Source: Fertoeibacter niger
GTDB lineage: Bacteria > Pseudomonadota > Alphaproteobacteria > Rhodobacterales > Rhodobacteraceae
NCBI RefSeq assembly: GCF_009380135.2
Contig: NZ_WHUT02000006.1
Span: 124,001-188,000 of the forward strand
DNA length: 64,000 bases
Reading direction: 5' to 3'
Shown here: in pieces, positions 5,616-30,387 of the stretch
Layout of the letters: each line of letters opens with the position of its first letter
How positions within the stretch are numbered: position 1 is the stretch's first letter
The notes under the pieces: model-generated
What the model saw: the letters and a program-made list of their open reading frames with translations, nothing else
What the model was told of the DNA's origin: nothing
Database searches by the model: none
Made by a program: the position numbers and the translations under genes

Positions 5616-5647
5616 CCGCGCGAACGCGAAATGGGGAGGAGAGGACT

Positions 5648-6967: not shown

Positions 6968-6992
6968 CCCGAAGCAGAGACGCTGAAAGAAC

Positions 6993-7016: not shown

Positions 7017-7047
7017 ATGCCGAAATTCCCGGGGCAGCATGCAGACC

Positions 7048-8685: not shown

Positions 8686-8869
8686 CGAAATCCGCAATCA
8701 GAGCATAGAAGGCGCCATAGCGAAGTCCGGGCTCTCCGATTGGCGGGCCTCGAAGGAATGCTGTCTGTCGGCATTGCGGTCCTCCCAGGTATAGCGCCCA
8801 TGCCTCATAAGAATTGGAGTAACTGATCCGCTTGCGCCATTTTTGAATTTAGGGAGAGAGGGAAGTGGA

Positions 8870-9697: not shown

Positions 9698-9710
9698 AGG
9701 GAGGAAGAAA

Positions 9711-10904: not shown

Positions 10905-10917
10905 CCGGCCGGTACCC

Positions 10918-11721
10918 ATGACCATCCTCACGCATCAAAGTCAGGAGCCCCTCAGGGGGGGGCTCCAATTGGGCGAGGATTGCGAGCTTGAAGTTCGCAA
11001 TCTCTCCTGCCAGTTCGGCAGCTTCAAGGCTGTCGACGATGTCAGCCTAAGGGTTCGGCGAGGCTCGATCCACGCGCTGATTGGGCCGAACGGGGCTGGA
11101 AAAACCACCTGTTTCAACCTCATCACCAGGTATCTGACGCCGACGAGTGGAAACATCATCTTCCGGGGCGAGGATATTACAAGCAAGAGCCCATCGCAAA
11201 TTGCGGATCGTGGTCTTGTTCGCTCGTTCCAGATTTGCTCGGTCTTCCAGAGCATGACCGTTCTGGAAAATGTCTGCCTCGCGCTTCAGCGAAAGACAGG
11301 AGATCAGTATGCGTTCTGGCGGTCCAAGAAGTCGCTGAAGAATCTGCATGAAACCGCCGTGTCATATATAGAGCCGGTTGGCCTTCTGCCTTGGCTGCAC
11401 AAACCCGCTTCGGACTTGTCCTATGGGCGAAAGCGCGCCTTGGAGTTTTCGGTGACCATGGCTCTAGAGCCCAAAATGATGCTTCTAGATGAGCCATTCG
11501 CGGGAATGGGACATGAAGATATTGGTGGAGTTGCCGCGCTGATCCAGGCCGAGGCCAAGGACCGTACGATTTTGATTGTGGAACACAATCTTTCGGTCGT
11601 TCAGAGCCTGTGTGACCGCGTCACGGTTCTTGTCCGTGGAAAGGTGGCTGCCGAGGGCGACTACAAGAGCGTCTCGCAGAACGATCAGGTTGTTCGGGCC
11701 TATCTGGGAGTTGATCCATGA
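10918..11721 (+). CDS. Liv-type ABC transporter ATP-binding protein (LivG-like)
   Basis: This 267-residue ATPase has Walker A GPNGAGKTT near residue 57 and Walker B MMLLDEPFAG. The signature is LSYGRKR where LSYGxQR is usual, and the switch histidine is in IVEHNL. A 25-residue N-terminal extension precedes the canonical EVRNLSCQFG start. It overlaps the next ATPase gene by 4 bases (ATGA), so translation is coupled. It energises the permease pair encoded downstream. Confidence 0.9.
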   Translation: MTILTHQSQEPLRGGLQLGEDCELEVRNLSCQFGSFKAVDDVSLRVRRGSIHALIGPNGAGKTTCFNLITRYLTPTSGNIIFRGEDITSKSPSQIADRGLVRSFQICSVFQSMTVLENVCLALQRKTGDQYAFWRSKKSLKNLHETAVSYIEPVGLLPWLHKPASDLSYGRKRALEFSVTMALEPKMMLLDEPFAGMGHEDIGGVAALIQAEAKDRTILIVEHNLSVVQSLCDRVTVLVRGKVAAEGDYKSVSQNDQVVRAYLGVDP

Positions 11722-16864: not shown

Positions 16865-17354
16865 AGCAACCGGACGTTGCCGGAAGAGCCCGGATACCGG
16901 CGCGAAAACATATAGTTAGACGGGGTTTACGCCGACTTGCACGACGCACAGGGGAACTTGCATAAGCCGCATTATCGGATATCTCCGCCCCGATCCGGGC
17001 AGGGGCGGCGTTGCGGAGACCGCCCGGAGAGGCAGCGTTTAAACCACTGATAAACGGCGGATAATTGGCCGTGCAAGACACAGATGCAGCGCGCAAGGCA
17101 CGGAAATGAGGGCGCGGAACATGCAACATCTGCCGCAAGTTCCACTGGGCAGTTGCATGTTAGGGAAAGTCTTTTGAAAACAACAGAGTGGCGTCTAACT
17201 GCTGTATGGCATGTCCGTGTCAACATGCAACTGATTTTGGCGAAAGCGGCCCGCAGCTTTCGTTCGCCGGTCGTCGGTGCCGGTCGCTAAACCGCACGAG
17301 AGGCACCTCGAGGCGGTGCGTCCGATCAACTTACTGGGGCAGACTCCGCCGGAA
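16865..17354. other. 490-bp intergenic boundary of the accessory island
   Basis: There is no convincing gene between the thiolase and the end of the large defence-like gene. Composition falls relative to the left flank. The stretch contains three copies of a 10-bp word (see the repeat entry) and a 12-bp word that recurs at the other side of the island. No tRNA or integrase is present. Confidence 0.45.
17118..17231. repeat. Three copies of AACATGCAAC, possible integrase arm or regulator sites
   Basis: AACATGCAAC occurs forward at 17118-17127, inverted at 17152-17161 and forward at 17222-17231. The first copy overlaps TGCAACATCTGC (17122-17133), which occurs again at 30153-30164. Clustered short repeats beside a direct repeat that brackets an island are what phage integrase arm and core sites look like; that reading is inference. 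Confidence 0.35.
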
Positions 17355-20300
17355 TTAGTCGGCGGCATTTGCCTGGACACGATCTCGTAGTTCTCGCGAG
17401 AGTCGAACCGACAAGTACGGTTCGATCACCAAAAGGAGCTTGGCGAAACGTGAACAAGGCGGACGAGTCGTGGCCAAGGCCGCCTCGACCAACGGGCGGG
17501 CCAGTTGCGGATTCTTGAGGCGGAAGCTTTGGCGGTTGAGGGCCTCGCGCCACGAACGTTCGAGCCAATCGGCTGCGTGCGAGACCACCTCTCCGGCGAT
17601 CGGGTTATTGTCGTTCTCGACCAGGCGCAGGGTGATAAGGAAAAGCTGGTCGATGGCCGGTACCGAGCTATTCTCAACAGACTGGGCGACGGAAAGCGCA
17701 ACAGAGAGAAAGTCCTCAATTGGCCGCGCCTTTGACAAGTCGCGAATGTTTCCGACCTGTTCGGGGGAGAAAACGGGCCGCGAGGCGGAAGCGATTGTCT
17801 GCAGCAGGATCGACGCTTCTGCTGCATTGCCTCGAAGGGACATTCGAATGAAGACTGCTAGGGGGTAGACGGTATAGTTGTGCCGAACAGCAGCGAACGC
17901 GACTTCTGACAAAATCGGCACCCGACCTCGCGAGAAATTGAAGTCGTCACCAATGGGCCGGGCACCATCTAGTGTACTTAAGGCCGCCTCGACATCAATC
18001 ACCCGAGCAAGAGCTTCACCGATAAGCTGCCCGTTCTCATTGCGGATGGCGGCGCGAAGTTGAGTGACGGGCCTGCTCAGCTCGAGCTCGAAGAGCGCGC
18101 GAGCATCCCAGTTTGGTTTGTCGATCGCGCGTCCAATTCCGTGATCCACTCCCAAGAGTGCCTCGAGGTCAGCCAACATGTACCACAGCACCTCCACTGG
18201 TCCGCTCTTCGTCGTAAGCAGATCTTGGTGCTTTGCTGAGTTGCTGTTGGCACCCGCGACCATCGATAGCCGGAGCTCGCCGGTCCCACCCTTAGTCCCA
18301 AAAAGCTCCATCCGTGCCCATACCACAGTATGGCCAAAGAGCTTCCGGAGTGCGACGTCGTCGAACTCGTTGTTGGTGCGTCGAGTATCGATGAGGGGCA
18401 GGGCCTCTGCGAGCAGCGCCAGCACTGCAGGCCCTCGGCCTGCAAAAACATGCTGAACCGCAGCGTCCGCGAGAAGGCCGGCAGCCATGTTGGCCATAGA
18501 CGGTAGAGCGACAGCCCCCGCGTTGCGCGCAGCACGCTCGAACAGACGCGCTGCCTCTTCATTCTGGCCGAGGTTCGCGAGTCCAACCGCAAGTTCGCGC
18601 TGGAAGTGCGCCAGTTCGATCGCTCCGAATTCGACAGCCTCCTCAAGCCGCATGCCGATCGCCAACTGTTCGGGATAGCGGTGGGCGTGAAAATGGATGC
18701 GCGAGAGGGCGCGCAGGAGTCGGACATTGCCGGGATGCCGCGCCAAGGCTCCCTCGACGACGGCCAATGCGGCGGCGCCTTTACCTAGATCCTCGTCAAG
18801 GATTATGGCCGCAGTCTCGACCGCCCCTAACATAAAGCCGACCTCTTCCTGGCGGTCTAGCAGTTCAGCGAGGCGCAAATATTCCTGTGCGAGCGACTCG
18901 GTGCCCCTCTCCCCCTTCTTGAAGAGCGTCATCCAGGGCCCGCGCACCGCGAGTTCGTCGTTAATGAACTCTGCTGGGAGGGTAGCCAACAGGGTCATCC
19001 GTTCTGCTTCGGTACGTCGTTTCAGCGCCTCGAAGGTGCGGATCAGGGCCGCAACAGATTTGGCTTGACCGAGTTGGAGCTGGAAGAAGAAGGCTGCTGC
19101 GCGGTTACCAATTGGCGCGTCGGCTGAGGCCGCAGGTAGATCGTCCAAAGCTATCGGTGAGACTGCCATCAAATCACCGAAAACAAGACAAGCGTCGGGC
19201 AGATCGGTGAGAACCTCAATCGCTCCTTCGAGTCCAAGCAGTTTCCACAATACGTACAAATGAAGAGAGTCAGCGCCTTTAACTTCGGAGTCACTGAAGG
19301 TCTCATGCGGGATGGCGGAAAGCTCTTCGTGGAAAAGGCCCCACGCAGTCCTGAGTTTTTCCGTTTGTCCGCTCGCCGCTAGTAGGAGTAACTGGGCGCT
19401 TCTAACGATGGCATGGAGCGGGGTGGGGTTGGGAAACTGACCAGTGAGCGAAGTGTAGTGGCAAAAAACCGTTGACGACTCGGCCAACATCTGAAGATCG
19501 GCGTGCGGTGCGCTCAGCACGGCGAAAGCAGCCAAGGTCAACGACCGTTCTTCACGTCCGAGCAGCGCATAAGTGAAGATAGGATCGAGTTTATCCGCTC
19601 GCAGAGACTTCCGAGCAGTGTGATCTCGGGCCGCCGCAGCATGGAGGGCTGTGATTTCCTCTTTTGGCAGCATGGCTTCCGCTGACCCGCGGATAAGCGG
19701 TGACGCGCGGAACTCGTCATTTCCGACGCGTTCGATCCAAGGGCCTAGCAGCCGATCAAATGCTTCGCCTGGTCGAGCAACTGGCGGTGACGGTCGCGCG
19801 AGCGCCAATACGGTTTGCCGATCAAACACACCGATAAGGAGCGAAAGCCGATACAGCAGGTCTCGCGCGCCCTCTGGGATTTCTCCCATGATCCTGCGCC
19901 GCGTATCGTCCAGGACTTCTCGCGTCGCTGCGTCGTGGCCCAAAAGGGCCGCGAGGCTCCTGAACTCCGATTCCGGCCATCCCCGCTCGGCGAGTCCAAG
20001 CGCCAAGGCATGTGCAAGTTGGGGGTGACCACCCGAGCTTGCAATATGGATGTATCGGCCCCAATCGTTCGGATTACCGCCAAGGAGAGCGACCAGTTGC
20101 TCGATCTCTGCTTCTGACAACGCACCCAACTCGATACAGGCGTTGGTCGCCAAACCGCAGCTTCGCAACATCGTTAAATTGGGGCGGGACGAGCCTGTTA
20201 AAAGGATCTTTGCCCCTTTCCGCGTAAGCAGTTGAATAGTCTCTGCGAGAGCGCCCGCAACAGCCGCGTCGTGGATGTGCTCGACGTCGTCGAGCACCGC

Positions 20301-21377
20301 CCCGGCAATACCTTGAACCGTGGCCTCTGCGCCGGCCCGCCTGAGCTGTGTAATGGTGTCGGAGGGCCCGAGTCCCCTCAGACGCAAGGTGCCCCAAGGT
20401 CCTCCCACCAACTTGGCGGCGCGCATTGCCAGAGTGGACTTCCCGTGCCCAGTAGCGCCCACCAACCAAGCGCCTCCACCTTGGGCGAGGCTTTCTATGA
20501 CCGCGGTGAGTGGGGCCTGCCGATCGGGGAGCTCTGGAAACGTCGGGACGGCCGCGAGACTAAGCGCAGATGGTCGAGCGACAGGCATCCCATCGTAGGA
20601 CGTTCCGAAAGTGCTTGCAAAGGCCGTCAACGCCCCCCGCGGCAGGCTGACATGCGTTAATCCCTCGAACAACTCAAGGAAGTCAGCTCGGTTCAATCGG
20701 CGGTCCTCGGGTGTGGCGCTAGCTGAGCGCTCGAAAACTTGCGTTAATATCGCGCCTACGGTTCCCGAGCTCGCACTCGGGGAAACCCCGAAAGTGTAAC
20801 CGTGTTCGATGAGGAGTTGATCTAGTCGCCGCCGTTGCTCTTCTTGGCCAAGTGCCTCTGTGACCCAGTCGATACGTCGCAGTAGGTCCTCGCGCACTCT
20901 TTCGTCACACGCCTCGCGCAAGAAGTCGTGGGCAAGGGAGCCAAGAGGCATAGCCAAGAGGCGGTCGCGAAGGGGCTGGAGAGGAACCGCAGGCCCAGCG
21001 GCTTCTCGCCAGTAGGTCAAGCCAGCCACCCCGCGAACGCGATGGTTTTCGTTACGTTCCATCCCAATCGCGGAGGTCGTTAGGTACCGGATCGTCACAA
21101 TCCGGTCGGGATTGCGGGCCTGTAGATCGAACAGGCTGTTGATCGTCTCTAGTACGCTGGGAGAGTTAGTGGTGACCGACTCCGAGGTGTGTTTGACCTG
21201 CACGCCGTGCAGCGCATCCTGCGCGGCAACTGCGAAGTCCTCAGCAACCTCAAGATGGAGGTCCTCGTCAGGCCAGAGCGAGACCCAAGCAATCGCGGCT
21301 GTGGTCACTTGGTAGAGGAACCCCGCCATGGCTGGGACGGCCGTTCGGCGTGGGTCCCCGTGAACATGCTCATTCAA
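17355..21377 (-). CDS. STAND-type NTPase with N-terminal Cap4/DUF4297-like nuclease, putative anti-phage protein
   Basis: This is a 1340-residue single-gene protein. Residues about 15-110 match the DUF4297/Cap4 endonuclease layout: a GFLYQ segment, acidic pair in VAEDF, then QVKHTSE with the catalytic lysine at about 62. Residues about 285-480 form a P-loop NTPase with Walker A GATGHGKST (about 307-315), Walker B VLDDVE (about 361-366) and LLTGSSRP as sensor. A winged-helix-like stretch follows, then about 700 residues of TPR-like helices, the usual ligand-sensing part of STAND proteins such as Avs. The start is uncertain: TTG at 21377 has GAGG 8 bases upstream, while GTG at 21404 has none. 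It begins shortly after the prophage repressor stop on the same strand, so it is probably expressed with the repressor in the lysogenic state. The phage trigger is not predictable. Confidence 0.8.
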   Translation of the reverse strand: MNEHVHGDPRRTAVPAMAGFLYQVTTAAIAWVSLWPDEDLHLEVAEDFAVAAQDALHGVQVKHTSESVTTNSPSVLETINSLFDLQARNPDRIVTIRYLTTSAIGMERNENHRVRGVAGLTYWREAAGPAVPLQPLRDRLLAMPLGSLAHDFLREACDERVREDLLRRIDWVTEALGQEEQRRRLDQLLIEHGYTFGVSPSASSGTVGAILTQVFERSASATPEDRRLNRADFLELFEGLTHVSLPRGALTAFASTFGTSYDGMPVARPSALSLAAVPTFPELPDRQAPLTAVIESLAQGGGAWLVGATGHGKSTLAMRAAKLVGGPWGTLRLRGLGPSDTITQLRRAGAEATVQGIAGAVLDDVEHIHDAAVAGALAETIQLLTRKGAKILLTGSSRPNLTMLRSCGLATNACIELGALSEAEIEQLVALLGGNPNDWGRYIHIASSGGHPQLAHALALGLAERGWPESEFRSLAALLGHDAATREVLDDTRRRIMGEIPEGARDLLYRLSLLIGVFDRQTVLALARPSPPVARPGEAFDRLLGPWIERVGNDEFRASPLIRGSAEAMLPKEEITALHAAAARDHTARKSLRADKLDPIFTYALLGREERSLTLAAFAVLSAPHADLQMLAESSTVFCHYTSLTGQFPNPTPLHAIVRSAQLLLLAASGQTEKLRTAWGLFHEELSAIPHETFSDSEVKGADSLHLYVLWKLLGLEGAIEVLTDLPDACLVFGDLMAVSPIALDDLPAASADAPIGNRAAAFFFQLQLGQAKSVAALIRTFEALKRRTEAERMTLLATLPAEFINDELAVRGPWMTLFKKGERGTESLAQEYLRLAELLDRQEEVGFMLGAVETAAIILDEDLGKGAAALAVVEGALARHPGNVRLLRALSRIHFHAHRYPEQLAIGMRLEEAVEFGAIELAHFQRELAVGLANLGQNEEAARLFERAARNAGAVALPSMANMAAGLLADAAVQHVFAGRGPAVLALLAEALPLIDTRRTNNEFDDVALRKLFGHTVVWARMELFGTKGGTGELRLSMVAGANSNSAKHQDLLTTKSGPVEVLWYMLADLEALLGVDHGIGRAIDKPNWDARALFELELSRPVTQLRAAIRNENGQLIGEALARVIDVEAALSTLDGARPIGDDFNFSRGRVPILSEVAFAAVRHNYTVYPLAVFIRMSLRGNAAEASILLQTIASASRPVFSPEQVGNIRDLSKARPIEDFLSVALSVAQSVENSSVPAIDQLFLITLRLVENDNNPIAGEVVSHAADWLERSWREALNRQSFRLKNPQLARPLVEAALATTRPPCSRFAKLLLVIEPYLSVRLSRELRDRVQANAAD

Positions 21378-21426
21378 TCGTCCAACCTCACACGTAGTCG
21401 GCACACACTTTGTGCAGATAGCCGCC

Positions 21427-22119
21427 TCAATCCCTGGTCGTATGGCCCCACCACATCACTCGTCCGATGATGTTGAGGCTTTCGATTTTGCTGCCGGTCA
21501 GAACTTCGGGGCTAAAGGCCGGGTTGTCTGACATCAACATGACCAACCCCGGCTCGGGGCGCTCGATGCGCTTGATGCGGGCTTGGCCGTCCTGGAGCAG
21601 CGCGTAGATGGGTGGGGGCCGCCGACTATGTTCTGACCTTGCCCGCACTGGCGCCTCTGTTTTGGAGCGGTCGATTAAGACGAGGTCACCATCATGGATG
21701 CAGGGGTTCATGCTGTCCCCCTGGGCGCGGGCGAGCACAGAGTTGGAAGCCGACACACCGATCCGGGTCAGCCAGTCTCGGCGGAAGGCCAAATGGCTGA
21801 TCACGGCTTCGGCTGCGTTGTTTGCGCCAGAACCCGCGGCAAGAGTAGCATCGTACAAAGGGATGTTGGCGAACTCTGCCCCGTCCAGGTCCATCGTAGA
21901 AACGGTGCCTGTCTCACGAGGCGGGCCGAAGTAGCACTCTAAGCCCAGAACATCCGCAAGTCGCTCAAGAGCTTGGAAAGAGTAGCGTTTATCGTCAGAG
22001 CGCGCTGATCTCATGTTTTTGATGAGGGCATAGTTGCCCACAGCAAGCTTTGACGCGGCAGCGTCTGACAAGCTCTTTTTAGCCAAGGCTTCGTCGATGA
22101 TCGATAGAATCGGGTCCAT
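21427..22119 (-). CDS. CI-like phage repressor, XRE/S24 peptidase family
   Basis: This 230-residue protein has an N-terminal helix-turn-helix-like DNA-binding region (about residues 10-60) and a C-terminal S24 (LexA/CI) autoprotease. The serine is in GDSMNP (about 136), the lysine in ARIKRIE (about 183) and an Ala-Gly cleavage bond in LAAGSG (95-96). This predicts RecA-stimulated self-cleavage, tying the promoter region to DNA damage. No ribosome site precedes the ATG and a candidate -10 lies just upstream, so the message may be leaderless. It is followed closely by the STAND nuclease gene, so repressor and defence gene likely form one operon. Confidence 0.88.
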   Translation of the reverse strand: MDPILSIIDEALAKKSLSDAAASKLAVGNYALIKNMRSARSDDKRYSFQALERLADVLGLECYFGPPRETGTVSTMDLDGAEFANIPLYDATLAAGSGANNAAEAVISHLAFRRDWLTRIGVSASNSVLARAQGDSMNPCIHDGDLVLIDRSKTEAPVRARSEHSRRPPPIYALLQDGQARIKRIERPEPGLVMLMSDNPAFSPEVLTGSKIESLNIIGRVMWWGHTTRD

Positions 22120-22207
22120 CGAGTTTTTTTAGCCTAAATGGGCTAAATCGACAAGACATAGCCAAATAGGGCTTTACCAGTAAGGCTCATTTTGGCTAAT
22201 TTGGGGC
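22120..22207. promoter_or_regulatory. Divergent repressor-controlled promoter region with TAGCC-N6-GGCTA operators
   Basis: A perfect inverted repeat TAGCC-N6-GGCTA lies at 22130-22145, a near-identical copy at 22159-22174, and a lone GGCTA half-site at 22194-22198. Leftward, TTGTCG (22154-22149) and TAAAAA (22131-22126) are 17 bp apart and overlap the first operator. Rightward, TTTACC (22173-22178) and CTAATT (22196-22201) are 17 bp apart and overlap the half-site. Both start points would fall close to the ATG codons. The arrangement is the classical lambdoid immunity switch; binding by the adjacent repressor is inferred. Confidence 0.6.
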
Positions 22208-22456
22208 ATGGACCAGCGACACGCCCTCATCACACTCGCAGAAACGCTCGCCTCTCATGAAGGGGTGACACACTTCGCGATTTCCTACCGCGCCCTCGGC
22301 AAGGGCGATTTCTTCAAGAAAATGAAGGATCACGGGGCTGATTGCCGCACTACGACGGCGGCAAAGCTTATGCGTTTCTTCGATCAGGCGTGGCCTGCCG
22401 ACCTTGAGTGGCCCCCTGACATCCCCCGCCCCCCGAAAACCAACCAGGCCGCATGA
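22208..22456 (+). CDS. Small Cro-position phage regulatory protein
   Basis: This 82-residue protein is divergent from the repressor. The middle part (ISYRALGKGDFFKKMKDHG followed by TTAAKLMRFFDQAWP) has helix-turn-helix-like spacing and resembles small proteins found beside repressors in alphaproteobacterial prophages. Position and size suggest a Cro-like or anti-repressor role, but no named domain is certain. The predicted promoter places the transcript start almost at the ATG. It is followed by a truncated HU gene. Confidence 0.65.
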   Translation: MDQRHALITLAETLASHEGVTHFAISYRALGKGDFFKKMKDHGADCRTTTAAKLMRFFDQAWPADLEWPPDIPRPPKTNQAA

Positions 22457-22496: not shown

Positions 22497-22661
22497 ATGA
22501 AAACCTACGCGAAATCCGATCTGGTCGCCGAACTGGCGCTGGAGCATGAGATGACCCAGGTCGAGGCCCGCCGTGTGCTGGACACGGCGTTGCGGCTGAT
22601 CAGCATGCCGTGGCGGGCGCTGCCGTTGCCGTGGGCGTGCCGTTGGTCTCGATGTGGCTGA
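22497..22661 (+). pseudogene. Truncated HU/IHF-family DNA-binding protein, deletion junction
   Basis: About 35 N-terminal residues (KSDLVAELALEHEMTQVEAR and the following VLDTALRLI helix) match the HU/IHF dimerisation helices, with AAAGGA upstream of the ATG. The remaining half, including the DNA-binding arms, is missing. From about base 22602 the frame becomes an unrelated proline/tryptophan-rich tail and the sequence continues as tape-measure gene in another frame. The break marks an internal deletion that joined the early region to the tail module. Confidence 0.65.
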
Positions 22662-24529
22662 ATGCGGGCTCGGGGGCGGATGACCTTGGCAAGCGCCTTG
22701 GGGCGCTGGATGAATCGCTCAGCAGCTACATTGGCTATGCTGAACTGTCGGCACAGAAGACGGCTGACCTGACAGAGAAGTTCGGACAGTTTGCGGGGCA
22801 GGTGCGTGGTTTTTCTACCTACCTTGCAAGCGTGACACTTGGCCAGACATTCGACGATCTCAGGGCCTCCATTGATCCGCTGAAAGCAGGTTTGAAGGAT
22901 GTCGAGGCAGCAGCGCGGGGTGTGGCGGAGGCGCGAGCCGCCATTTCCGCTATTCCTGAAGATGATCCGTGGGCACTTCTGAACGCCCAAGACGCCTTGG
23001 CACTGTTTGAGGGAGAACTCGACGAGGCTGCCAAGCGCATGGGCCTGCTCCCAGAGCAGGCGCTGGCTCTTGCTGCGGCCATGGATGAAGTCGGCAAGGC
23101 AGCGAATTCACCAGAAGATATCGCTATCCGAGCAGGTGAAGCTCTTGCTGTTATCCAGCAGATCGCGCGCGACGGCCTCCAGCTCCCTGCGCCACTTAGG
23201 GAGGCGGCTGCGGCGCTGGAGGAAATGCAGCGTCGCGGGGCAGAAGCGAATGTCGAATTCGAGAGGATGCCAACAATCCTTGGCTCTGCCATTGATGCGG
23301 CCAATGCCGTGGCGGGGTCTGTCGGCGGGATAGGAGACGCGGCCCTCCGCGCGGCCGGCAACCTCTCTGTCATGGCAACCCGCATCTGGGAAGCTGCACG
23401 GGCGAGGGTGGCTTCGGCGACATGGGTTGACAACGATACCGGGGGCCTTGCATCGCAATATCGCCTCTACGGTCAAGGCAGGGTAGAAGGCGACAGGTTG
23501 GCCCGCGAGAGCGGCGACCTCTACGGCAACCGACCGATCCTGCCTGTCGTTGCGCCAGCGAGTGGCCGGGGTGGCGCGGGCGGCGGGGGCGGTGGCGGTG
23601 CTGGCCTTGGCGCTGTGTCCACCATCAAGGACGAACTCGCCCGGCTGAAACCGTCCTACGCGGCGGATGTGGCGGCGGCGGAGGCGTGGCGCGACAAGGC
23701 GCTGGCCTCGCTGAAGAAGGCGCAGGCCGGATACGCGACCTTCGCGGCCGATGTGGAGACGATCTTTCAGGAACGCATGGCCAAGGCCTATGAGGCCGAC
23801 CTGAAGCGGCGCGACGACTGGCAGTCGGGGGTGCAGCGGGCGCTGATCGAGATCAACAAGGATCAGCTGAGCTGGGCCGATGTCTCGGAAAACATCGTCA
23901 CCAAATGGTCGTCGGGCATGGAGGATGCCTTCGTGGCGATGGGGCGCACCGGCAAGTTCGAGGTGGGCAGCCTGGTGGATTATGTGCAGGAGCAGTTCGC
24001 GCGGCTGGCCTTCCAGCAGGTGATCCAGCCCGGGCTGAACTCCATCTTCGGGGCAATCACCGGGGCCCTTGGCATTGGTGGCCCCAGTGCGGCCGGCGCG
24101 GCGGCTGCGTCGATTTCCACCAATCACACCGGATCGCCTGGGGTGCAGCGCACCTATGCGCTGGGTCGGGCGGGCGGCGACCGGATGCGGCCCGATGAAC
24201 GGCTGACCATGATGCGGCGGGGTGAGGAGATCATGACCGCCCGGGCACTGGAGAATGCGGGCGCGCTGATCTCGGCCATGACGGCGGTGGCGGCGTCGGC
24301 GGCATCGGGGCAGCCTGCAGGCAGCACCATCGTGATCCAGCCGATGAACAACAGCTCGGTCCCGCTGCAAATGGAGGTCGAGGAACGCACCGACGAGCGG
24401 GGCCGTCAGCATTATGTCATGGCGGTGTCGGATGCTGTGGCCACAGGGCTGCGCGCGCCGGGCGGCAAGGCCCGCCGCACGCTGAAGGCCGATTTCGGGA
24501 TCGACCGGCAGGGCTCGGTGCTGCGATGA
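22610..24529 (+). CDS. Phage tail tape measure protein, N-terminally truncated
   Basis: This is a 639-residue remainder of a tail length-determining protein. The N-terminal part has the hydrophobic GAAVAVGVPLVSMW segment and long alanine-rich coiled-coil-like helices. The C-terminal part has the lambda gpH-like block (DVSENIVTKWSSGMEDAFV, then FARLAFQQVIQPGLNSIFG) and ends with a MRRGEEIMTARALENAG tail segment. Intact siphophage homologues start with further tape-measure sequence that is missing here because the gene is fused to the HU remnant. The GTG used as start is simply the first available codon. Function as a tail ruler is unlikely in this state. Confidence 0.75.
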   Translation: MAGAAVAVGVPLVSMWLNAGSGADDLGKRLGALDESLSSYIGYAELSAQKTADLTEKFGQFAGQVRGFSTYLASVTLGQTFDDLRASIDPLKAGLKDVEAAARGVAEARAAISAIPEDDPWALLNAQDALALFEGELDEAAKRMGLLPEQALALAAAMDEVGKAANSPEDIAIRAGEALAVIQQIARDGLQLPAPLREAAAALEEMQRRGAEANVEFERMPTILGSAIDAANAVAGSVGGIGDAALRAAGNLSVMATRIWEAARARVASATWVDNDTGGLASQYRLYGQGRVEGDRLARESGDLYGNRPILPVVAPASGRGGAGGGGGGGAGLGAVSTIKDELARLKPSYAADVAAAEAWRDKALASLKKAQAGYATFAADVETIFQERMAKAYEADLKRRDDWQSGVQRALIEINKDQLSWADVSENIVTKWSSGMEDAFVAMGRTGKFEVGSLVDYVQEQFARLAFQQVIQPGLNSIFGAITGALGIGGPSAAGAAAASISTNHTGSPGVQRTYALGRAGGDRMRPDERLTMMRRGEEIMTARALENAGALISAMTAVAASAASGQPAGSTIVIQPMNNSSVPLQMEVEERTDERGRQHYVMAVSDAVATGLRAPGGKARRTLKADFGIDRQGSVLR

Positions 24530-24951
24530 CCTATCCCCAATGGCCCGGCGAGCTGACCAAATTCGAACGTTCCGGCTGGCAGATGCAGCTGCAGGACGCG
24601 CGGCAACGCCGCCAGTCCGATGCCGGGCCGCCCGGCTACCGGCGCAGGTTTTCCGCAGCGGCGCGGATGGTGGCGGCCTCGCTGATCGTGGACCAGAACG
24701 AGCGGGCGATTTTCGACCGGTTCTATGCCGTCACGGTCGCGCAGGGCGCGCGGATGTTCTGGATGCCGGATCCCACCACGGACGGCCAGCCCCTGCTGAT
24801 GCCGGACGGCACACCGCTGCTGACCGGGGCGGGCGAGCCCTTGCTGATCGCCCGGCGCTGGCTGGTGCTGTTCGGAGATCCGCCCCCGGCCGAGACCATC
24901 CATCAGCAGGTGCAATACCGCAAATCCTTCAGCCTGGTGGTGCTGCCATGA
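24526..24951 (+). CDS. Phage minor tail protein, unknown family
   Basis: This 141-residue protein overlaps the tape-measure stop by 4 bases and the following gene's start by 4. The N-terminus (YPQWPGELTKFERSGW) and C-terminus (QVQYRKSFSLVVLP) suggest a compact tail-tip adaptor. In the middle a short PLL-containing unit is repeated three times (QPLLMPDG, TPLLTGAG, EPLLIARR). The position between tape measure and DUF1833/NlpC genes matches distal tail proteins of Rhodobacterales siphophages. No catalytic motif is seen. Confidence 0.6.
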   Translation: MTYPQWPGELTKFERSGWQMQLQDARQRRQSDAGPPGYRRRFSAAARMVAASLIVDQNERAIFDRFYAVTVAQGARMFWMPDPTTDGQPLLMPDGTPLLTGAGEPLLIARRWLVLFGDPPPAETIHQQVQYRKSFSLVVLP

Positions 24952-25469
24952 GACGTGTTTCCCTCAATGCCCGGATGATGCAGGACGCCGTGGCCTCGGA
25001 AGAGCTGTATGTCGTGCTGTTCGAGATCGAACATCCGGATCTGGAGGCCGCGATCCGGCTCTCGACCGACAATGCGGAGGTCGTGCAGGACGAACCCCGC
25101 ATCTATGGCACCCGGTCAAGCTGGCGCGGGGCCAACCCGGGGACCCAGCCCTTCTGGTGGATCATCGCCTCCGCCCTTCTGCCCTCGGACATGGAGGATG
25201 CGCCCGCCACCGCCACGGTGATCATCGAGACGGTCGATCAGGAGATGGCGACGCTGCTGCGCAGCTTCACCACGCCCGCCACGGTGCATCTGGCGGTGGT
25301 GCTGGCCTCCAGCCCATCGGTCATCGAGGCCGAATACAGCGACCTGATGATCACCACCTCCGACATCGGCGAGGAGATCACCCTGACCATCAGCCGCGAG
25401 GAGATCGAGCAGGAATATTATCCCATGGGCCGCATGACGCGCGACCACTTTCCGGGGCTGCATCTGTGA
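24948..25469 (+). CDS. DUF1833-type phage tail protein
   Basis: This 173-residue protein resembles DUF1833 tail proteins: an N-terminal helix followed by ELYVVLFEIEHPDLE, then a beta-rich body with TATVIIETVD and a C-terminal ITLTISREEIEQEYYPMGR with the aromatic ending typical of the family. The ATGA overlap with the previous gene and GTGA overlap with the next indicate coupled translation. It is a likely tail-tip structural component. Confidence 0.7.
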   Translation: MRRVSLNARMMQDAVASEELYVVLFEIEHPDLEAAIRLSTDNAEVVQDEPRIYGTRSSWRGANPGTQPFWWIIASALLPSDMEDAPATATVIIETVDQEMATLLRSFTTPATVHLAVVLASSPSVIEAEYSDLMITTSDIGEEITLTISREEIEQEYYPMGRMTRDHFPGLHL

Positions 25470-25882
25470 AGCCGCTCTGGAGCAACGATTTCATCGGCCT
25501 GCCCTATCTGGCCTTCGGGCGCAGCAGGGCGGGGTGCGACTGCTGGGGGCTGGCCTGCGTGATCCATGCCGAGCTGACCGGCATCCGCCTGCCGGATTAT
25601 CTGGGCTATGGATCGGTGGATGAGCATGCCGAGATTGCCGCGCTGATCGGCGGGGCGCAGGCCTCGCCGCTGTGGCGGCCGGTCAGTCTGGACGAAGCGC
25701 AGGCGCTGGATGTCGTCGTGTTCCGCCGCGGGCGGCATGCCACCCATATCGGGGTGGTGATCCGTCCCGGGCTGATGATCCACATGGCGGACGAGGATTG
25801 CGCCAAGCTCTCGGTCTATCTGACCGGGCCGTGGAAGCAGCGGCTGGCAGGGCATTTCCGCTGGGCGGGGGTGCGGCCATGA
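25466..25882 (+). CDS. NlpC/P60-family phage tail cell-wall hydrolase
   Basis: This 138-residue C40 peptidase has the catalytic cysteine in GCDCWGLAC near residue 24, the histidine in HATHIGVV and a third polar residue in MIHMADEDC. Such proteins sit at the tail tip of siphophages and cut peptidoglycan peptides during DNA injection. A GTG start overlaps the upstream stop. Length is normal, and this is one of the few tail genes that looks fully intact. Confidence 0.82.
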   Translation: MKPLWSNDFIGLPYLAFGRSRAGCDCWGLACVIHAELTGIRLPDYLGYGSVDEHAEIAALIGGAQASPLWRPVSLDEAQALDVVVFRRGRHATHIGVVIRPGLMIHMADEDCAKLSVYLTGPWKQRLAGHFRWAGVRP

Positions 25883-26634
25883 CCGGCAAAGCCCTCATTC
25901 CCGTGCTGGCCGCGCCGCATCTGGACCCCGCTGCGGGGCGGATCGCGCTGGATTTGCCCGAAGGGCTGACCTTGGCGCAGATCCTTTCCACTGTGCTGCC
26001 CGGGGCCACGCCCGATGAGCTGCTGCGCTGCCGCGTGGCGCTGGTGACGGAACAGGGGTCGCAGATCGTGCTGCCGGGTGTTTGGCATCGCGTGCGTCCC
26101 CGGCCCGGGGTGCGTGTGGTGATCCGGGTCATCCCCGGCAAGGATGGCCTGCGCTCGCTGCTGTCGATCGTCGTCTCGATCGCCGCAATTGCCGCCGGGC
26201 AGTTTTGGGGGCTGAAGGTCGGACAGTTGCTCGGTCTGGGGGCAGGGACAGCCGGTGCGGTCGGGTCAGCCCTGGTGGGCGTGGGTGTGTCGATCGTGGG
26301 CAACCTCCTGATCAACGCCCTGATCCCGCCTGACAAGCCCGAAAGCCGCGACGCGCAGAACCGCTATCTCGATCCGCCCTATTGGGGCTGCGAGGGCGAC
26401 TATGGCAAGGCGCTGTTCGCCCCGCAGGATTTTGCCCGGCTGGCGGCGGTTCTGGGGGCGTTGAAAGGGCGCTTCATCCTGTCCTTAAATGACGTTCAAG
26501 GCGTGCGGGATACCTTCGCGGCGTTCCAGATGGCCCCGGTCAAGACCACCTATACGATTGCCTCAAAGGGTGCTGTGCCCGACCGGGCGGAACTGCTGAT
26601 CTCCAACTTCACCCTGCCGGGTGTCACGCCATGA
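25879..26634 (+). CDS. Chimeric ORF: tail host-specificity protein (J-like) N-terminus fused to D12-class adenine methylase C-terminus
   Basis: Residues 1 to about 150 match the start of tail J/tip proteins: a beta domain, the VRVVIRVIPGKDGLRSLLS segment, a membrane-like glycine/alanine stretch and NLLINALIPPDKPE. The sequence then switches to a Dam/D12 methyltransferase C-terminus: the YLDPPYW catalytic motif, the GRFILSLNDVQGVRDTF segment and TYTIASK. The join is near bases 26340-26355 and keeps the frame. The J protein normally exceeds 1000 residues, and the methylase has lost its SAM-binding N-terminus, so neither activity is expected. This is the second deletion junction in the island. 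Confidence 0.72.
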   Translation: MTGKALIPVLAAPHLDPAAGRIALDLPEGLTLAQILSTVLPGATPDELLRCRVALVTEQGSQIVLPGVWHRVRPRPGVRVVIRVIPGKDGLRSLLSIVVSIAAIAAGQFWGLKVGQLLGLGAGTAGAVGSALVGVGVSIVGNLLINALIPPDKPESRDAQNRYLDPPYWGCEGDYGKALFAPQDFARLAAVLGALKGRFILSLNDVQGVRDTFAAFQMAPVKTTYTIASKGAVPDRAELLISNFTLPGVTP

Positions 26635-26846
26635 CGCCCGCAAGCCGTGACGTGGAAATGCGTTGTTCGGGCTGTGCCCGGCTGCTATTCAAGATGGAAC
26701 CGCAGGCCCTGCGTGGTAGGGTCTCGGTCAAATGCCCGCGCTGCCGGGCCTTCAATCACCTGAGGCCACAGACGAGCCCCCCGCCCGAGCGCGCCAGCGC
26801 CGTCGAGGAACGCGCGTGTGGCTCTTCATTCCCCCCAAAGACATGA
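26631..26846 (+). CDS. Com-family zinc-finger regulator
   Basis: This 71-residue protein has two CxxC pairs (MRCSGC and VKCPRC) arranged as in phage Mu Com, an RNA-binding activator of mom translation. LLFK between the pairs is also a Com landmark. It overlaps the chimeric methylase ORF by 4 bases and the cytosine methyltransferase by 29. Com-like genes next to DNA-modification genes are common in prophages, so it probably controls translation of the methyltransferase; that link is inferred. Confidence 0.75.
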   Translation: MTPASRDVEMRCSGCARLLFKMEPQALRGRVSVKCPRCRAFNHLRPQTSPPPERASAVEERACGSSFPPKT

Positions 26847-27711
26847 CGATTTTCGCGGCATCAGCCTTTGCGCCGGTGTCGGAGGCCTTGATCTCGGCCT
26901 GCACATCGCAGTGCCCGGATACCGCACTGTATGTCATGTCGAGCGAAACAGTTTCGCCGCAGCCACTCTCGTGGCGCGGATGGCAGACGCGTCCCTGGCT
27001 GCGGCTCCTGTCTGGGACGATCTGCGATCCTTCGACGGCCGCCCGTGGCGCGGCCGCGTTCATATCGTCACTGCCGGTTATCCCTGCCAGCCCTTCAGCC
27101 TTTGCGGAAACCGCCGTGGAGCCGACGACCCCCGCCACCTCTGGCCCGATGTCGCCCGGATCGTCGCCGAGGCCGCACCCCCCTTCGTCTTCCTCGAGAA
27201 CGTACCCGGGCATCTGTCCCTCGGTCTCGACATCGTCGCCGGAGACCTTCAGGCAATGGGCTACCGCGTTGCAGCGTGCCTCGTATCAGCGGCGGAAGTC
27301 GGTGGGCCGCATACCCGCGAAAGGCTGTTCCTACTGGCCCACGCCGACCTTCAAGGGCTCGGGCAACCGGGCCTGCGTGACGCTGAGCCCGGCAGGGATC
27401 TCCTTCCGCACCGACCGGAACCAGACGGGCAAACAGGTGGCGCTGAAGAATGCGGCCCTGGCCTGGACGCTGATGTGGGATCTGATGACGGCTGCGGGCT
27501 GGACGCCGCAGCGCCCCCGCTCTTCCCACCGCTGCCGGGTGGTTTTGCTGAATGGGGAGAAGCACTCAGACGGCACCCTGAGCTCAAACCCTGCGTTCAG
27601 CGACTGGGTGATGGGCTGGCCACCTGGCTGGACCGATCCGCTGCAGCCGGTAACGGTGTGGTCCCCCTGGCTGCGGCTAGCGCGTGGCGCATGCTGAGGG
27701 GGGAGGTGTGA
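26818..27711 (+). CDS. DNA (cytosine-5) methyltransferase
   Basis: This 297-residue C5 methyltransferase has motif I SLCAGVGGLDLGL, motif IV GYPCQPFS (catalytic Cys about 90), motif VI FLENVPG and motif VIII GGPHTRERLFLLA. The end contains ADGLA-like GDGLATWLDR and AAGNGVVPLAAASAWR (motifs IX-X). GAGGAA lies 7 bases before the GTG start. The variable target region between motifs VIII and IX is short, so the enzyme is compact, as in phages. From about 27326 to the end a second frame also looks protein-coding. It sits 112 bp upstream of the GHKL-nuclease gene and may protect host DNA from it. Confidence 0.82.
   Translation: MALHSPQRHDDFRGISLCAGVGGLDLGLHIAVPGYRTVCHVERNSFAAATLVARMADASLAAAPVWDDLRSFDGRPWRGRVHIVTAGYPCQPFSLCGNRRGADDPRHLWPDVARIVAEAAPPFVFLENVPGHLSLGLDIVAGDLQAMGYRVAACLVSAAEVGGPHTRERLFLLAHADLQGLGQPGLRDAEPGRDLLPHRPEPDGQTGGAEECGPGLDADVGSDDGCGLDAAAPPLFPPLPGGFAEWGEALRRHPELKPCVQRLGDGLATWLDRSAAAGNGVVPLAAASAWRMLRGEV
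27326..27697 (+). other. Second coding-like frame inside the cytosine methyltransferase
   Basis: In the frame one base ahead of the methyltransferase, the translation reads YWPTPTFKGSGNRACV, then TGKQVALKNAALAWTLMWDL, and ends NPAFSDWVMGWPPGWTDP before a stop at 27697. WPTPT repeats and an MGWPxGWTD ending are hallmarks of the C-terminal region of phage-encoded cytosine methyltransferases, so this is not a typical shadow frame. There is no good start codon in front of it. It could be a remnant reached by frameshifting or a genuinely dual-coded region. Confidence 0.4.
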
Positions 27712-27823
27712 GGAAGAATTTAGGACGCGACCATCGACTGAAAATGGCGTAGCCACACATTGGAGGGAGTGACTCTCGACCCCTTGGCGATAGACTGTCG
27801 AGCTTGGATGAAAGAGATTCCTC

Positions 27824-29965
27824 ATGACCACATTGAACGAAAACCTCAAAAATCGTATCCGGAAGCTGATGAAGCCAGCAAACCAGGCACAAGCCTTGCA
27901 GCCGTTTTTCGAAGCGGTCAGCAACGCGGTCATGGCGGTAGAAGACCTAGAGTTGGGCGATGTACGCGACGGAACCATCGAAATCAGCATCACCGGGTTA
28001 GGAGGCGACAATGTTGAGATTGCTGTTCTGGATCGCGGCATCGGTCTCGACCCACTTCGCTTTGAAGCATTCTGCCAGATCGACACCGAGTTCAAGAAGG
28101 ATCGCGGTGGCAAGGGTGTGGGGCGCCTATACTGGCTCGACGCATTCAGGAAAATCGAGGTTGAAAGTCAGTACCGAGACGAGGGCGGTTTCAAACAGCG
28201 GGCATTTGACTTTCGCCTGACTGATGTTGAACAGATCGTTGACAAGGCACCAAAACTTGCTTGGCGACCCGAAGAGACTGGTACAATGGTTCGCTTCGAA
28301 GGATTGTCCCTCGGGCCATACAAAGAGCACTTCTCTAAAACGGCTGAGACCCTCAAAAACTATCTTGCAGCTGAGTTCATTGCTCCGTTTCTCAGCGGGA
28401 ACTCTCCCCAAATTAAACTGACACTCAGTGCTGTGGCAGGTAAGCCGGTGGAGGTATTTTATCCGAGTGCAGTGTCGCAGCTGGTCATCGTCGGACCAGA
28501 GCCACTTGGCCCTATAGAGTTGCCCAGCGGAGAGAACCTTACCGTGAAGGGATTTCTTTGCGACGCCAAGGCAAGCCGTGGACTGGACGGAAAACACCAA
28601 GTCCATCTCCTCGGCAATGGCCGGACGATTCAGTCTCGGAAGGTAGACGATCTACTCGGTATCAGCCAGCTCGAGCACGAAGGTGCGCAGGGGCTAACGC
28701 TCCACCTGATTGTTCAGGGAGACTTTCTTGATCAGCGGACGACAGAGAGTCGGACAGCCTTCACGATACCTGAAGATGAGCTGAAAGCGATTGTGAAAGC
28801 CGTTGTGACTGACGCGCGAAAGAACTTTATCGCAGATCAGGTAAAAAAGTTCGACGACATGCGTCGCGCAACCTTTCAGGCGTTCTTGAGAGAGCAGCCA
28901 ATTTTTGCCTATGGCGATACCGATGAAATCTTTACCAGCCTCCCGGTTGGCGCCACCACACCAGAGGCGTATGCTCAGGCACTGGTCGTGCCGCGGATGC
29001 GAGCAGAAAAGAACCGCGAGACTGTCCTGACAAACCTGGTCAACGCGCTCGTTTCTGGCAAGCAAATTCCTGAAGACTTCTCAAAGATAGTGATCGAGGC
29101 AGCGGGGGCTGTCCAAGAGAACGAGCGGACCTCTCTTGCTCACCATGCAGCACGTCGGCGAGTGGTTCTAGATCTCCTTGATCAACTGATCCGACGTGTC
29201 AGAAAGAGCAAGAGCCAAGGCGAGGACGTCTATCACTTGGAGAAGACATTGCACTCACTACTTGTACCAATGCGACGAATTGGTACTGATCCTGGCAAAT
29301 GGGAAAGCGCGGGTCATGATTTGTGGATCGTAGACGAACGCTTGGCTTTCACGTCTTCTTTTGCCTCTGACCTGCCGCTGCGAGAGTTTGTAATCGGCAG
29401 TGAACTTGAGGATCGGCCCGACATTGTCTTGTGGGACGTAGGATTTAGCCTTGGCGCAGTCGACGAGGTGGGTGGGATTGGTGAAGTGGACGACGCTCGC
29501 GCGCTTTCCGAAGTGTTCATAGTAGAGCTGAAGCACCCAGGTCGTGAAAACTACGGCAAAGATGAACGCATCGAAGACCAAGTGAGAAAGTACGCTGCGG
29601 CGATTATGAACAGCCAGGTCGAGAGCTTTGGTCGGCGTCGGATCAAGGTTTCGAAGGATTGTCAGTTTCACTGCCTGGTTGTCGCGGACTTTCTCGGTCG
29701 GCTCGGAGACGAAGTGTCAGGTTGGGATCCAATTTATAACGAGCGTGGGCGTCAGCGCAGGCTCGGCGGGAAATTCGCGGGCGTCACGATCGAAGCTGTT
29801 GAATGGGATTATGTGCTGGACACTGCAAGAACGCAGAACCGGGCATTATTGTCCGCGGCGGGGCTGCAGAAGCCCGGCAAGACCAAGTTTGTGCGTCACC
29901 CTGAGCCTGACCAGTCCAAGGAAGATGCCGACGCGTCGAAGTTACTGACTGGCGCGACCGAGTAG
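27824..29965 (+). CDS. GHKL (MORC/MutL-like) ATPase with C-terminal PD-(D/E)XK nuclease, putative defence protein
   Basis: This 713-residue protein opens with a GHKL ATPase: N-box FFEAVSNAV (Glu30, Asn34), G1 box LDRGIGL (Asp70), G2 box GGKGVGRL (95-102) and a later GTMVRF. Residues about 190-320 look like the S5-like transducer domain. The C-terminal third has a PD-(D/E)XK nuclease: RPDIVLWD (Asp533), FIVELKHP (Glu568, Lys570) and DQVRKY (Gln586, Tyr590). This pairing matches the prokaryotic paraMORC ATPases described in restriction-like contexts by comparative genomics. AAAGAGA precedes the ATG. The gene is less GC-rich than its flanks, so it was probably acquired as cargo. With the methyltransferase upstream it could form a restriction-modification-like pair; this is inference. 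Confidence 0.8.
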   Translation: MTTLNENLKNRIRKLMKPANQAQALQPFFEAVSNAVMAVEDLELGDVRDGTIEISITGLGGDNVEIAVLDRGIGLDPLRFEAFCQIDTEFKKDRGGKGVGRLYWLDAFRKIEVESQYRDEGGFKQRAFDFRLTDVEQIVDKAPKLAWRPEETGTMVRFEGLSLGPYKEHFSKTAETLKNYLAAEFIAPFLSGNSPQIKLTLSAVAGKPVEVFYPSAVSQLVIVGPEPLGPIELPSGENLTVKGFLCDAKASRGLDGKHQVHLLGNGRTIQSRKVDDLLGISQLEHEGAQGLTLHLIVQGDFLDQRTTESRTAFTIPEDELKAIVKAVVTDARKNFIADQVKKFDDMRRATFQAFLREQPIFAYGDTDEIFTSLPVGATTPEAYAQALVVPRMRAEKNRETVLTNLVNALVSGKQIPEDFSKIVIEAAGAVQENERTSLAHHAARRRVVLDLLDQLIRRVRKSKSQGEDVYHLEKTLHSLLVPMRRIGTDPGKWESAGHDLWIVDERLAFTSSFASDLPLREFVIGSELEDRPDIVLWDVGFSLGAVDEVGGIGEVDDARALSEVFIVELKHPGRENYGKDERIEDQVRKYAAAIMNSQVESFGRRRIKVSKDCQFHCLVVADFLGRLGDEVSGWDPIYNERGRQRRLGGKFAGVTIEAVEWDYVLDTARTQNRALLSAAGLQKPGKTKFVRHPEPDQSKEDADASKLLTGATE

Positions 29966-30146
29966 ATCGGAAGCTTGGGCAAGCGTCTGAGCCTTCGACA
30001 CACAGGGAGTGCCTCACCTTCACAAGCTCGCTGCAGGCTCCACCCTAACCGAGCTCGGTCACGCCGCCTTTGCGGCAGATGGCAAGTTGAAGGGCCGTGA
30101 TTGGCCCCCTTTTAACCTTCGTTTAAGGCGACGCTGCGGAAAACCC

Positions 30147-30230
30147 ATCTGCTGCAACATCTGCTGTCAAACCCTGCAAAATCTGCTGTCACGCCACAGT
30201 CACGCCACAGCCACACACGCCACAGCCACA
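30147..30230. repeat. Clustered short direct repeats
   Basis: ATCTGCTG occurs at 30147, 30159 and 30181. CACGCCACAG occurs at 30190, 30201 and 30216. TGCAACATCTGC at 30153-30164 repeats a word found at 17122-17133 on the other side of the island. The cluster may be part of an attachment site or replication slippage; sequence alone does not decide. Confidence 0.4.
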
Positions 30231-30301
30231 CTTGTCCACAGAAGTTTCACCAAGAAAGTGCTTTACAGGGTTCCCCCCTCGCCTCACAATATCTAGTAAG
30301 G

Positions 30302-30369
30302 GCAGCATCCGGCAACGCTGCTACTTGCCAGACACCCAGCCTCTTGTGGGTCCAGGCTCACGGGAGGCT
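30302..30369 (+). promoter_or_regulatory. Structured leader upstream of the YbjN-like gene
   Basis: Two hairpins are predicted: GCAGC (30302-30306) with GCTGC (30317-30321), and AGCCTC (30338-30343) with GAGGCT (30364-30369), the latter with an inner GTG/CAC stem. They lie 19-86 bases before the ATG. They could be a 5' leader or a weak terminator of the island transcript; I do not recognise a known riboswitch. Confidence 0.3.
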
Positions 30370-30387
30370 TCATGAAGAGGCCAGGCG

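What the first reader, a model, noticed from the sequence alone, without database searches (positions are those of the whole stretch)
17355..22119. Prophage repressor operon carrying a giant Cap4-nuclease STAND NTPase
The S24 repressor (stop 21427) is followed on the same strand, within about 50 bases, by a 1340-residue protein with a QVK nuclease motif, a GATGHGKST P-loop, LDD Walker B and TPR-like C-terminus. Avs-type STAND proteins with Cap4 nucleases recognise phage proteins; here the gene sits in the immunity operon, so it would be expressed in the lysogen from the repressor promoter. The C-terminal sensor does not match one I can name, so the recognised phage protein may be new.
Basis: partly seen in the sequence, partly recalled or inferred. 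Interest (0 to 1): 0.82.

Follow-up and report, generated by a model that had tools for sequence, protein, structure and literature searches.

The report
Phage-borne NLR-like nuclease defence gene
A decayed Mu-like virus in this bacterial genome carries, just behind its repressor gene, a large predicted sensor protein with a DNA-cutting domain that probably kills infected cells to stop other viruses; in some related viruses the same spot holds restriction or other candidate defence genes.

Summary
Fold models give a Cap4/LmuA-type nuclease (residues 23-251), a STAND NTPase (276-620; best matches a STAND-TPR protein, Apaf-1, MalT) and a TPR-like superhelix. Foldseek's first hit for the N-terminal half is Avs3. 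No PADLOC Avs model matched, so it resembles Avs but belongs to an unnamed family (66 loci in one genome scan, 15 plasmid records; some within 7 kb of CBASS, Qat, SIR2 or TIR genes).
Among 25 distinct loci with repressor and such sites, the slot is 19 bp to 6.4 kb long; in 8 it holds restriction, modification or candidate-defence genes, a lower bound from a partial scan. No other slot was found to hold this STAND family. Cotranscription, activity and trigger are untested. Known kind of protein, unnamed family, new carrier position.

The parts
17355..21404 (-). Cap4-STAND-TPR gene, 1349 aa from GTG (alternative TTG start at 21377, 1340 aa)
   Evidence: full-length homologues
20652..21338 (-). 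N-terminal Cap4/LmuA-type nuclease domain, residues 23-251 (E52, E55-D56, Q69-V-K71)
   Evidence: PADLOC LmuA 1.7e-8, LmuA in 35 of 45 members; Pfam Cap4_nuclease in 11 of 45; fold matches HerA-DUF Z 17.9, LmuA Z 16.0, Cap4 Z 13.4
19545..20579 (-). STAND NTPase (Walker A 316-324, Walker B 371-373, GHPQ 459-462) with winged-helix part, residues 276-620
   Evidence: VIA: 6mfv STAND-TPR Z 22.7, Apaf-1 3sfz Z 21.3, MalT 8bob Z 21.0; conservation
17358..19544 (-). C-terminal all-helical TPR-like superhelix, residues 621-1349, presumed sensor
   Evidence: model of residues 590-1349, mean pLDDT 88.9; LGN Z 15.1 with rmsd 9.2, MalT domain III Z 12.9
21427..22119 (-). S24 (CI/LexA-like) repressor with GDSM (134), IKRI (182, Lys183) and AAG (94-96); their catalytic and cleavage roles are recalled
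   Evidence: Pfam PF00717 1.6e-18, phrog_4 3.9e-29, motif positions
22120..22207 (.). Divergent intergenic region with TAGCC/GGCTA inverted repeats, presumed operators
   Evidence: sequence, repeats I1, I2, I4
22208..22456 (+). Early gene of the Mu-like phage (phrog_7669), divergent from the repressor
   Evidence: 5.9e-29; same place in several relatives
22497..22600 (+). 5' piece of an HU-like gene, apparently cut by a deletion (ends approximate)
   Evidence: sub-threshold Pfam Bac_DNA_binding 0.024, phrog_379 0.0055, sequence
22610..24529 (+). 3' part of a tail tape-measure gene (start not meaningful)
   Evidence: Pfam PF09718 4.5e-11, phrog_19487 2.7e-17
24540..25469 (+). Minor tail protein
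   Evidence: phrog_396 1.8e-17
25672..26634 (+). Tail fibre J piece running on into the C-terminal end of a DNA methyltransferase
   Evidence: phrog_31 residues 119-232, phrog_56 residues 232-314
26732..27697 (+). DNA methyltransferase-like remnant
   Evidence: phrog_1008 2.6e-12
17118..17231 (-). Left-end triad: three exact GTTGCATGTT sites in -/+/- order, presumed transposase-binding sites
16866..16900 (.). Approximate left border of the remnant, next to the stop codon of a thiolase gene; the outermost consensus of relatives looks incomplete
   Evidence: by eye

Best explanation
The gene encodes a single-chain NLR-like antiphage protein. Inferred mechanism: in the resting lysogen it is an inactive monomer; the TPR superhelix binds a component made by an invading phage (or a GTA-like particle); ATP binding in the STAND NTPase drives oligomerisation; the Cap4-type domains come together, cut double-stranded DNA and abort the infection. 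It is lysogenic cargo: it lies between the repressor gene and the left end of a Mu-like phage, in the repressor's direction, so it is most simply transcribed by read-through from the repressor promoter and stays on while lytic genes are off. The phage has since decayed, leaving repressor, presumed operators and cargo as a fixed island. Shown: domains, motif conservation, position, left-end sites, missing transposition genes. Inferred: cotranscription, oligomerisation, nuclease activity, trigger.
For: Fold and family matches; nuclease-type and Walker residues nearly invariant in 54 proteins; homologues within 7 kb of CBASS (L004), Qat (L006), SIR2 (L011) and TIR (L015) genes; same strand, 22-49 bp gap, no promoter- or terminator-like site in it; left-end triad beyond the gene with the word, order and spacing of Rhodovulum phage vB_RhkS_P1; restriction, modification or candidate-defence cargo in the same slot elsewhere.
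Against: No transcript data; the promoter scan covers sigma-70 consensus only. Only 1 of 78 other homologue loci has an S24 gene upstream and none has MuA or MuB in its flanks, so the family does not depend on phage carriage. K71 is Arg in 7 of 54. No transposase or MuB in the window. The Avs3 match is domain by domain, not a superposition of the whole half (TM 0.27, rmsd 22; VIA Z 15.0 with rmsd 16.4). The nearest homologue found is 46% identical, too far to measure recent selection on this copy.
Confidence: 0.75

Rival explanations
1. A defence-island gene that landed beside a dead prophage after the phage decayed; it has its own regulation and was never phage cargo.
For: No MuA or MuB near any of 78 homologue loci; plasmid homologues lie in defence-like neighbourhoods; the phage is defective; a gene of plasmid-related type (27824-29965) lies at the other edge.
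Against: The left-end triad lies outside the gene, so the gene is inside the phage end; the gap to the repressor is 22-49 bp; relatives carry other genes in this same slot. Insertion by recombination after decay is not excluded.
Confidence: 0.15
2. Lysogenic cargo whose job is to guard the prophage: it senses loss of the repressor, or a competing Mu-like phage of another immunity type, rather than unrelated lytic phages.
For: It sits in the immunity region; one other homologue (L025) also follows an S24 gene.
Against: 77 of 78 other homologue loci show no S24 gene in the flanks searched, so sensing an S24 repressor is unlikely to be the family's general job.
Confidence: 0.1
3. A regulator of the MalT/Apaf type with a degenerate nuclease domain, not a defence effector.
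For: MalT is among the best fold matches (Z 21.0); K71 is Arg in 7 of 54 proteins.
Against: This copy keeps E52, D56, Q69 and K71; defence-type neighbours of homologues.
Confidence: 0.05

Closest known systems
Avs3 (AVAST type 3; PDB 8dgc)
   Same: Cap4-type nuclease (recalled for Avs3), STAND NTPase, helical C-terminus; first Foldseek hit of the N-terminal half, E 1.7e-10; VIA Z 15.0 over residues 23-571
   Different: Match is by separate domains (rmsd 16-22); no PADLOC Avs family hit; 1349 residues against 2028 in the solved chain; Avs3 is not among the rows shown for the C-terminal half
LmuA, the Cap4 nuclease of Lamassu
   Same: Nuclease domain: PADLOC LmuA 1.7e-8, fold Z 16.0
   Different: LmuA is a separate subunit working with an SMC-like partner (recalled); here the nuclease is fused to a STAND sensor
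STAND NTPases of the P4-like satellite hotspot (PMC9122126, passages seen)
   Same: STAND plus C-terminal repeat protein as defence cargo of a mobile element; the paper also reports a hotspot between cI and integrase of a Vibrio P2-related phage
   Different: N-terminal domains named there are TIR, SIR2, Mrr_cat and BpuSI_N; 'Mu-like' does not occur in its text
Mu-like phages RC1, vB_RhkS_P1, vB_PeaS-P1, vB_ThpS-P1
   Same: Repressor near the left end, opposite transposase and transposition genes, ParB-like gene annotated in three of the four; left-end triad in two of the four
   Different: The slot there holds small or unknown genes (a YbjQ-like gene in RC1); the window copy lacks transposition genes

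Membership tests
AVAST/Avs | Central STAND NTPase | tested here: met
   6mfv Z 22.7, rmsd 3.8, 295 aligned; Apaf-1 Z 21.3; motifs
AVAST/Avs | N-terminal effector domain (nuclease type) | tested here: met
AVAST/Avs | C-terminal helical/TPR-like sensor | tested here: met
   fold only
AVAST/Avs | Sensor of the same family as Avs1-5 | tested here: inconclusive
   No Avs family among PADLOC hits at E<=1 (that this PADLOC version holds Avs models is recalled); Avs not in the rows shown for the C-terminal half, which excludes nothing
AVAST/Avs | Binds a conserved phage protein (terminase or portal, recalled) and blocks infection | not testable with these tools
   needs experiment
Cap4/DUF4297 nucleases | Sequence and fold match with PD-(D/E)XK-type residues | tested here: met
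   LmuA 35 of 45 and DUF4297 26 of 45 members; Cap4_nuclease 11 of 45, not the window member; fold Z 13.4-17.9
Lamassu | LmuA next to an SMC-like LmuB | tested here: not met
   neighbours are a repressor and a thiolase; nuclease is fused to STAND
Mu-like transposable phage | MuA and MuB transposition genes | tested here: not met
   none in the window with profiles made from relatives; hence a remnant only
Mu-like transposable phage | Left-end repressor and repeated left-end sites | tested here: met
   binding by a transposase not tested

The most novel reading that the evidence does not exclude
Mu-like phages of this kind have a dedicated defence-cargo slot between the repressor gene and the left-end transposase sites, read from the immunity promoter and loaded with interchangeable systems (type III R-M, methylases, DUF5131 and DUF488 candidate systems, a KAP/HEPN-like pair, and here an unnamed Cap4-STAND family); the slot can be mined with the word-independent X-rc(X)-X left-end signature.
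Probability: 0.5. Interest if true: 0.6.

Novelty: new variant of a known kind. Interest (0 to 1): 0.5.

Why it matters
Phage-carried NLR-like proteins bear on how innate-immunity modules spread. This case gives a defined position, a DNA signature that finds it without annotation, and several unstudied candidate systems. It also makes testable whether a STAND protein can be held safely in a lysogen under repressor control.

Tried and rejected
Close copies: order search 2 of 292 genomes, one the window's own and the other a 26% match over residues 18-238 with two stops; 1 of 101 relatives, own; none in phage records; none in viral contigs with single-sequence patterns. Solved-structure sequence searches: single protein, one hit at E 0.38; N-half profile, 393 hits of which the 60 shown are P-loop AAA+ ATPases, uninformative; C-half profile, 8 weak hits. 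Avs structures are not in the rows shown for the C-terminal half; this excludes nothing. The single word GTTGCATGTT with one mismatch is not over-represented in the window (4 found, 3.82 expected, 57 of 100 shuffles reach it); only the exact, ordered cluster is telling. Right-end copies: two scattered two-mismatch words in 26000-30500, no cluster. Flanking direct repeats: none convincing. Empty site: four relatives keep ybjN-proC from about window 30230 rightwards; no thiolase match in the four stretches fetched, which reach 1.9 to 7 kb upstream of ybjN, so the left flank could not be matched. Triad control: 0 in 400 kb of mononucleotide-shuffled window sequence, one strand, and 0 for the patterns read backwards in 292 genomes.

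Dropped or kept before the slot count: L119 (type IIG R-M behind a repressor) and L118 were left out because no triad was found; the other S24 loci without a triad are L113, L121, L123, L124, L125, L128, L130. 14 of 32 viral stretches had no S24 hit upstream and were left out. L141, L169 and L170 were taken as repeats of L112, L117 and L131 (same slot length; same ORF or contig length where seen). L164 (AAA ATPase plus subtilase) stays in the 25 but is not counted as defence cargo, because its MuA lies on the wrong side. Slot ORFs of L114, L139, L144, L150, L154, L160, L161, L162, and second ORFs of some others, went to no family library (12 of 12 searches used); L153 and L165 have almost no slot. 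So 8 of 25 is a lower bound.

Full report
Observation. The ORF at 17355-21404 (-) and the S24 ORF at 21427-22119 (-) are real and as described. The repressor belongs to Peptidase_S24 (1.6e-18) and to phage repressor families (3.9e-29).

Protein. The window protein alone gives one good family hit, PADLOC LmuA over residues 19-113 (1.7e-8); Pfam hits are all below their cut-offs and NCBIfam gives none. Homologues: 15 plasmid records, 5 covering at least 80% of the query, and 66 loci from one scan of genome contigs, the best 46% identical (Rubellimicrobium). Fifty-four full-length proteins (window, 44 genome loci, 9 plasmid loci) were aligned. G28, Q32, E52, D56 and Walker K322 are invariant; K71 is K in 47 and R in 7; D373 is kept in 53; the GHPQ motif, which I take for the STAND GxP motif (recalled), in 52-54. 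The least conserved 50-residue blocks are 1201-1250, 701-750, 251-300 (the stretch between nuclease and NTPase), 751-800 and 1101-1150; four of the five lie in the C-terminal half. Two loci (L063, L076) match only in the N-terminal 250 residues and have ORFs of 2136-2140 codons.

Fold. Two models from 45-row alignments: residues 1-620 (mean pLDDT 84.5, pTM 0.58) and 590-1349 (88.9, pTM 0.81). Foldseek's first hit for the first is Avs3 (1.7e-10, but TM 0.27 and rmsd 22, so domain by domain). VIA-align puts residues 276-620 on a STAND-TPR protein (6mfv, Z 22.7, rmsd 3.8, 295 aligned), Apaf-1 (Z 21.3) and MalT (Z 21.0), and residues 23-251 on HerA-DUF (Z 17.9), LmuA (Z 16.0), Hachiman (Z 13.7) and Cap4 (Z 13.4); Avs3 itself scores Z 15.0 with rmsd 16.4. 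The C-terminal half is a TPR-like superhelix (LGN Z 15.1, rmsd 9.2; MalT domain III Z 12.9); such helical matches show arrangement only. Relatives confirm the nuclease: LmuA in 35 of 45, DUF4297 in 26 of 45, Cap4_nuclease in 11 of 45.

Neighbours of homologues. Twelve plasmid loci were fetched, one without annotation. Within 7 kb of the homologue lie a CBASS cyclase and S-4TM effector (L004), Qat genes (L006), a SIR2 gene (L011) and a TIR gene (L015); in the others I name no system with certainty.

The prophage. S24 matches of any strength occur in 64 of 292 genomes of the order. Fifteen stretches around the better ones were fetched. In eight, a transposase-like ORF of about 650-730 codons was picked by eye (used as the MuA profile); Pfam confirmed the one tested (L112, Bacteriophage Mu transposase 5.5e-39), and one MuB-like ORF (L118) hit AAA_22 and TniB. 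A phrog_7669 homologue is divergent from the repressor in several. Close sequenced phages are Rhodobacter RC1, Rhodovulum RS1 and vB_RhkS_P1, vB_PeaS-P1 and vB_ThpS-P1. PMC5488378 (passages) calls the last two Mu-like and implies an HU-beta gene in vB_PeaS-P1, which fits the HU piece here. In the window an HU-like 5' piece is followed directly by tape-measure, tail and methyltransferase pieces, and no MuA or MuB is found.

Left end. Behind the gene lie three exact GTTGCATGTT sites at 17118 (-), 17152 (+) and 17222 (-). Phage vB_RhkS_P1 and prophages L112 and L115 have the word TTGCATGTT in the same order and spacing behind their repressors. A word-independent scan for X, rc(X), X (9 bases, at most one mismatch in all, spacings 69-72 and 103-107) finds a triad behind the repressor in 9 of 18 S24 loci (L112, L114, L115, L116, L117, L120, L122, L129, L131), with at least four different words, once in the window, and never in 400 kb of shuffled sequence. 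Exact patterns of two of the words hit 3 and 2 of 292 genomes, the reversed control none. Mu's ends carry three transposase sites (stated in PMC4378225, passages), so I read the triad as transposase sites; binding is untested. The gene is therefore inside the phage end, between repressor and left end. The outermost consensus of relatives looks incomplete here (by eye).

The slot. Exact triads in viral contigs: 24 stretches with one word, 8 with another; 18 of the 32 have an S24 gene upstream. With the 10 above and without three repeats, 25 distinct loci remain. Slots run from 19 to 6445 bp. Restriction, modification or candidate-defence genes occur in 8 of 25: window (STAND), L115 (N6/N4 methylase), L116 (D12 methylase), L117 (DUF488 = PDC-M19A, and D12 methylase), L122 (DUF5131 = PDC-M41B, with PDC-M41A), L140 (D12 methylase), L147 (N6/N4 methylase and type III res), L167 (KAP NTPase and a sub-threshold HEPN hit). 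Of the other slot genes tested, L112, L120, L129, L131 and the first of L157 hit no Pfam family, and L151 holds a DinB-type polymerase. Lone methylases may protect the phage from host restriction rather than defend the host. The STAND family was found in no other slot (blastp; no match in phage records); a family profile gave only a weak AAA hit in L164 (6e-4). The sample was chosen by repressor or triad similarity and only partly scanned, so 8 of 25 is no frequency estimate, and no enrichment test was made.

Regulation. The scan shows no promoter-like or terminator-like site between repressor and gene; totals in the region are at the shuffled level (1 against 1.8, 7 against 6.2). Inverted TAGCC/GGCTA repeats lie between repressor and phrog_7669. 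Read-through is inference. In Pseudomonas phage Fc02 an exclusion gene lies upstream of the repressor, apparently on the same transcript (PMC9936078, abstract).

Literature. Listings of searches showed no report of this STAND family or of this slot in Mu-like phages; the library holds open-licence papers only, and few papers were opened. PMC9122126 (passages) reports STAND cargo in P4-like satellites and a cI-integrase hotspot in a Vibrio P2-related phage; PMC12724215 (passages) a defence gene in the Gifsy-1 immunity region; PMC4378225 (passages) plasticity regions in Pseudomonas Mu-like phages. PMC13236601 (abstract and outline) ties an NLR-like system to gene transfer agents in Caulobacter, a reason to count GTAs among possible triggers.

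Verdict. A known kind of protein (Cap4-STAND, Avs-like in architecture) from an unnamed family, carried by a defective Mu-like prophage at a position that in related phages also holds restriction and candidate-defence genes. 

Noticed in passing
window 27824-29965 (+): 713-aa protein with a sub-threshold HATPase_c hit (9.1e-5) and low GC, just right of the remnant; homologues on 53 plasmid records (Agrobacterium 17, Rhizobium 5); a distant one (22%, E 9e-14) lies directly upstream of the STAND homologue in L007.
   Followed up: partly
L025 5008-9984: Qipengyuania homologue also follows an S24 repressor, about 320 bp upstream; by eye the surroundings look like a conjugative island with OLD-like and UvrD-like genes downstream.
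   Followed up: partly
L117 (= L169), 5266-11496: Another locus with S24 repressor, tape-measure and minor tail genes in direct succession and no transposase in the stretch, as in the window: a second decayed element or a different lineage.
   Followed up: no
L006, L007, L011: In Agrobacterium plasmids the homologues lie near RHE_PE00001-family genes, in L006 and L007 with a site-specific integrase beside them: perhaps a cargo island.
   Followed up: no
L147, locus coordinates 766-6806 (-): N6/N4 methylase and type III res pair between repressor and left end of a viral contig, in a 6.4-kb slot.
   Followed up: partly
L164 3961-7546: AAA ATPase plus subtilase pair between an S24 gene and a triad; the MuA gene lies on the other side, so the layout is unclear.
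   Followed up: partly
L063, L076: N-terminal domain of this family on ORFs of 2136-2140 codons, suggesting swapping of the rest of the protein.
   Followed up: no
L186 6203-6397: Stretch 71% identical to window 26364-26558 (methyltransferase piece) lies just upstream of ybjN in a relative.
   Followed up: no
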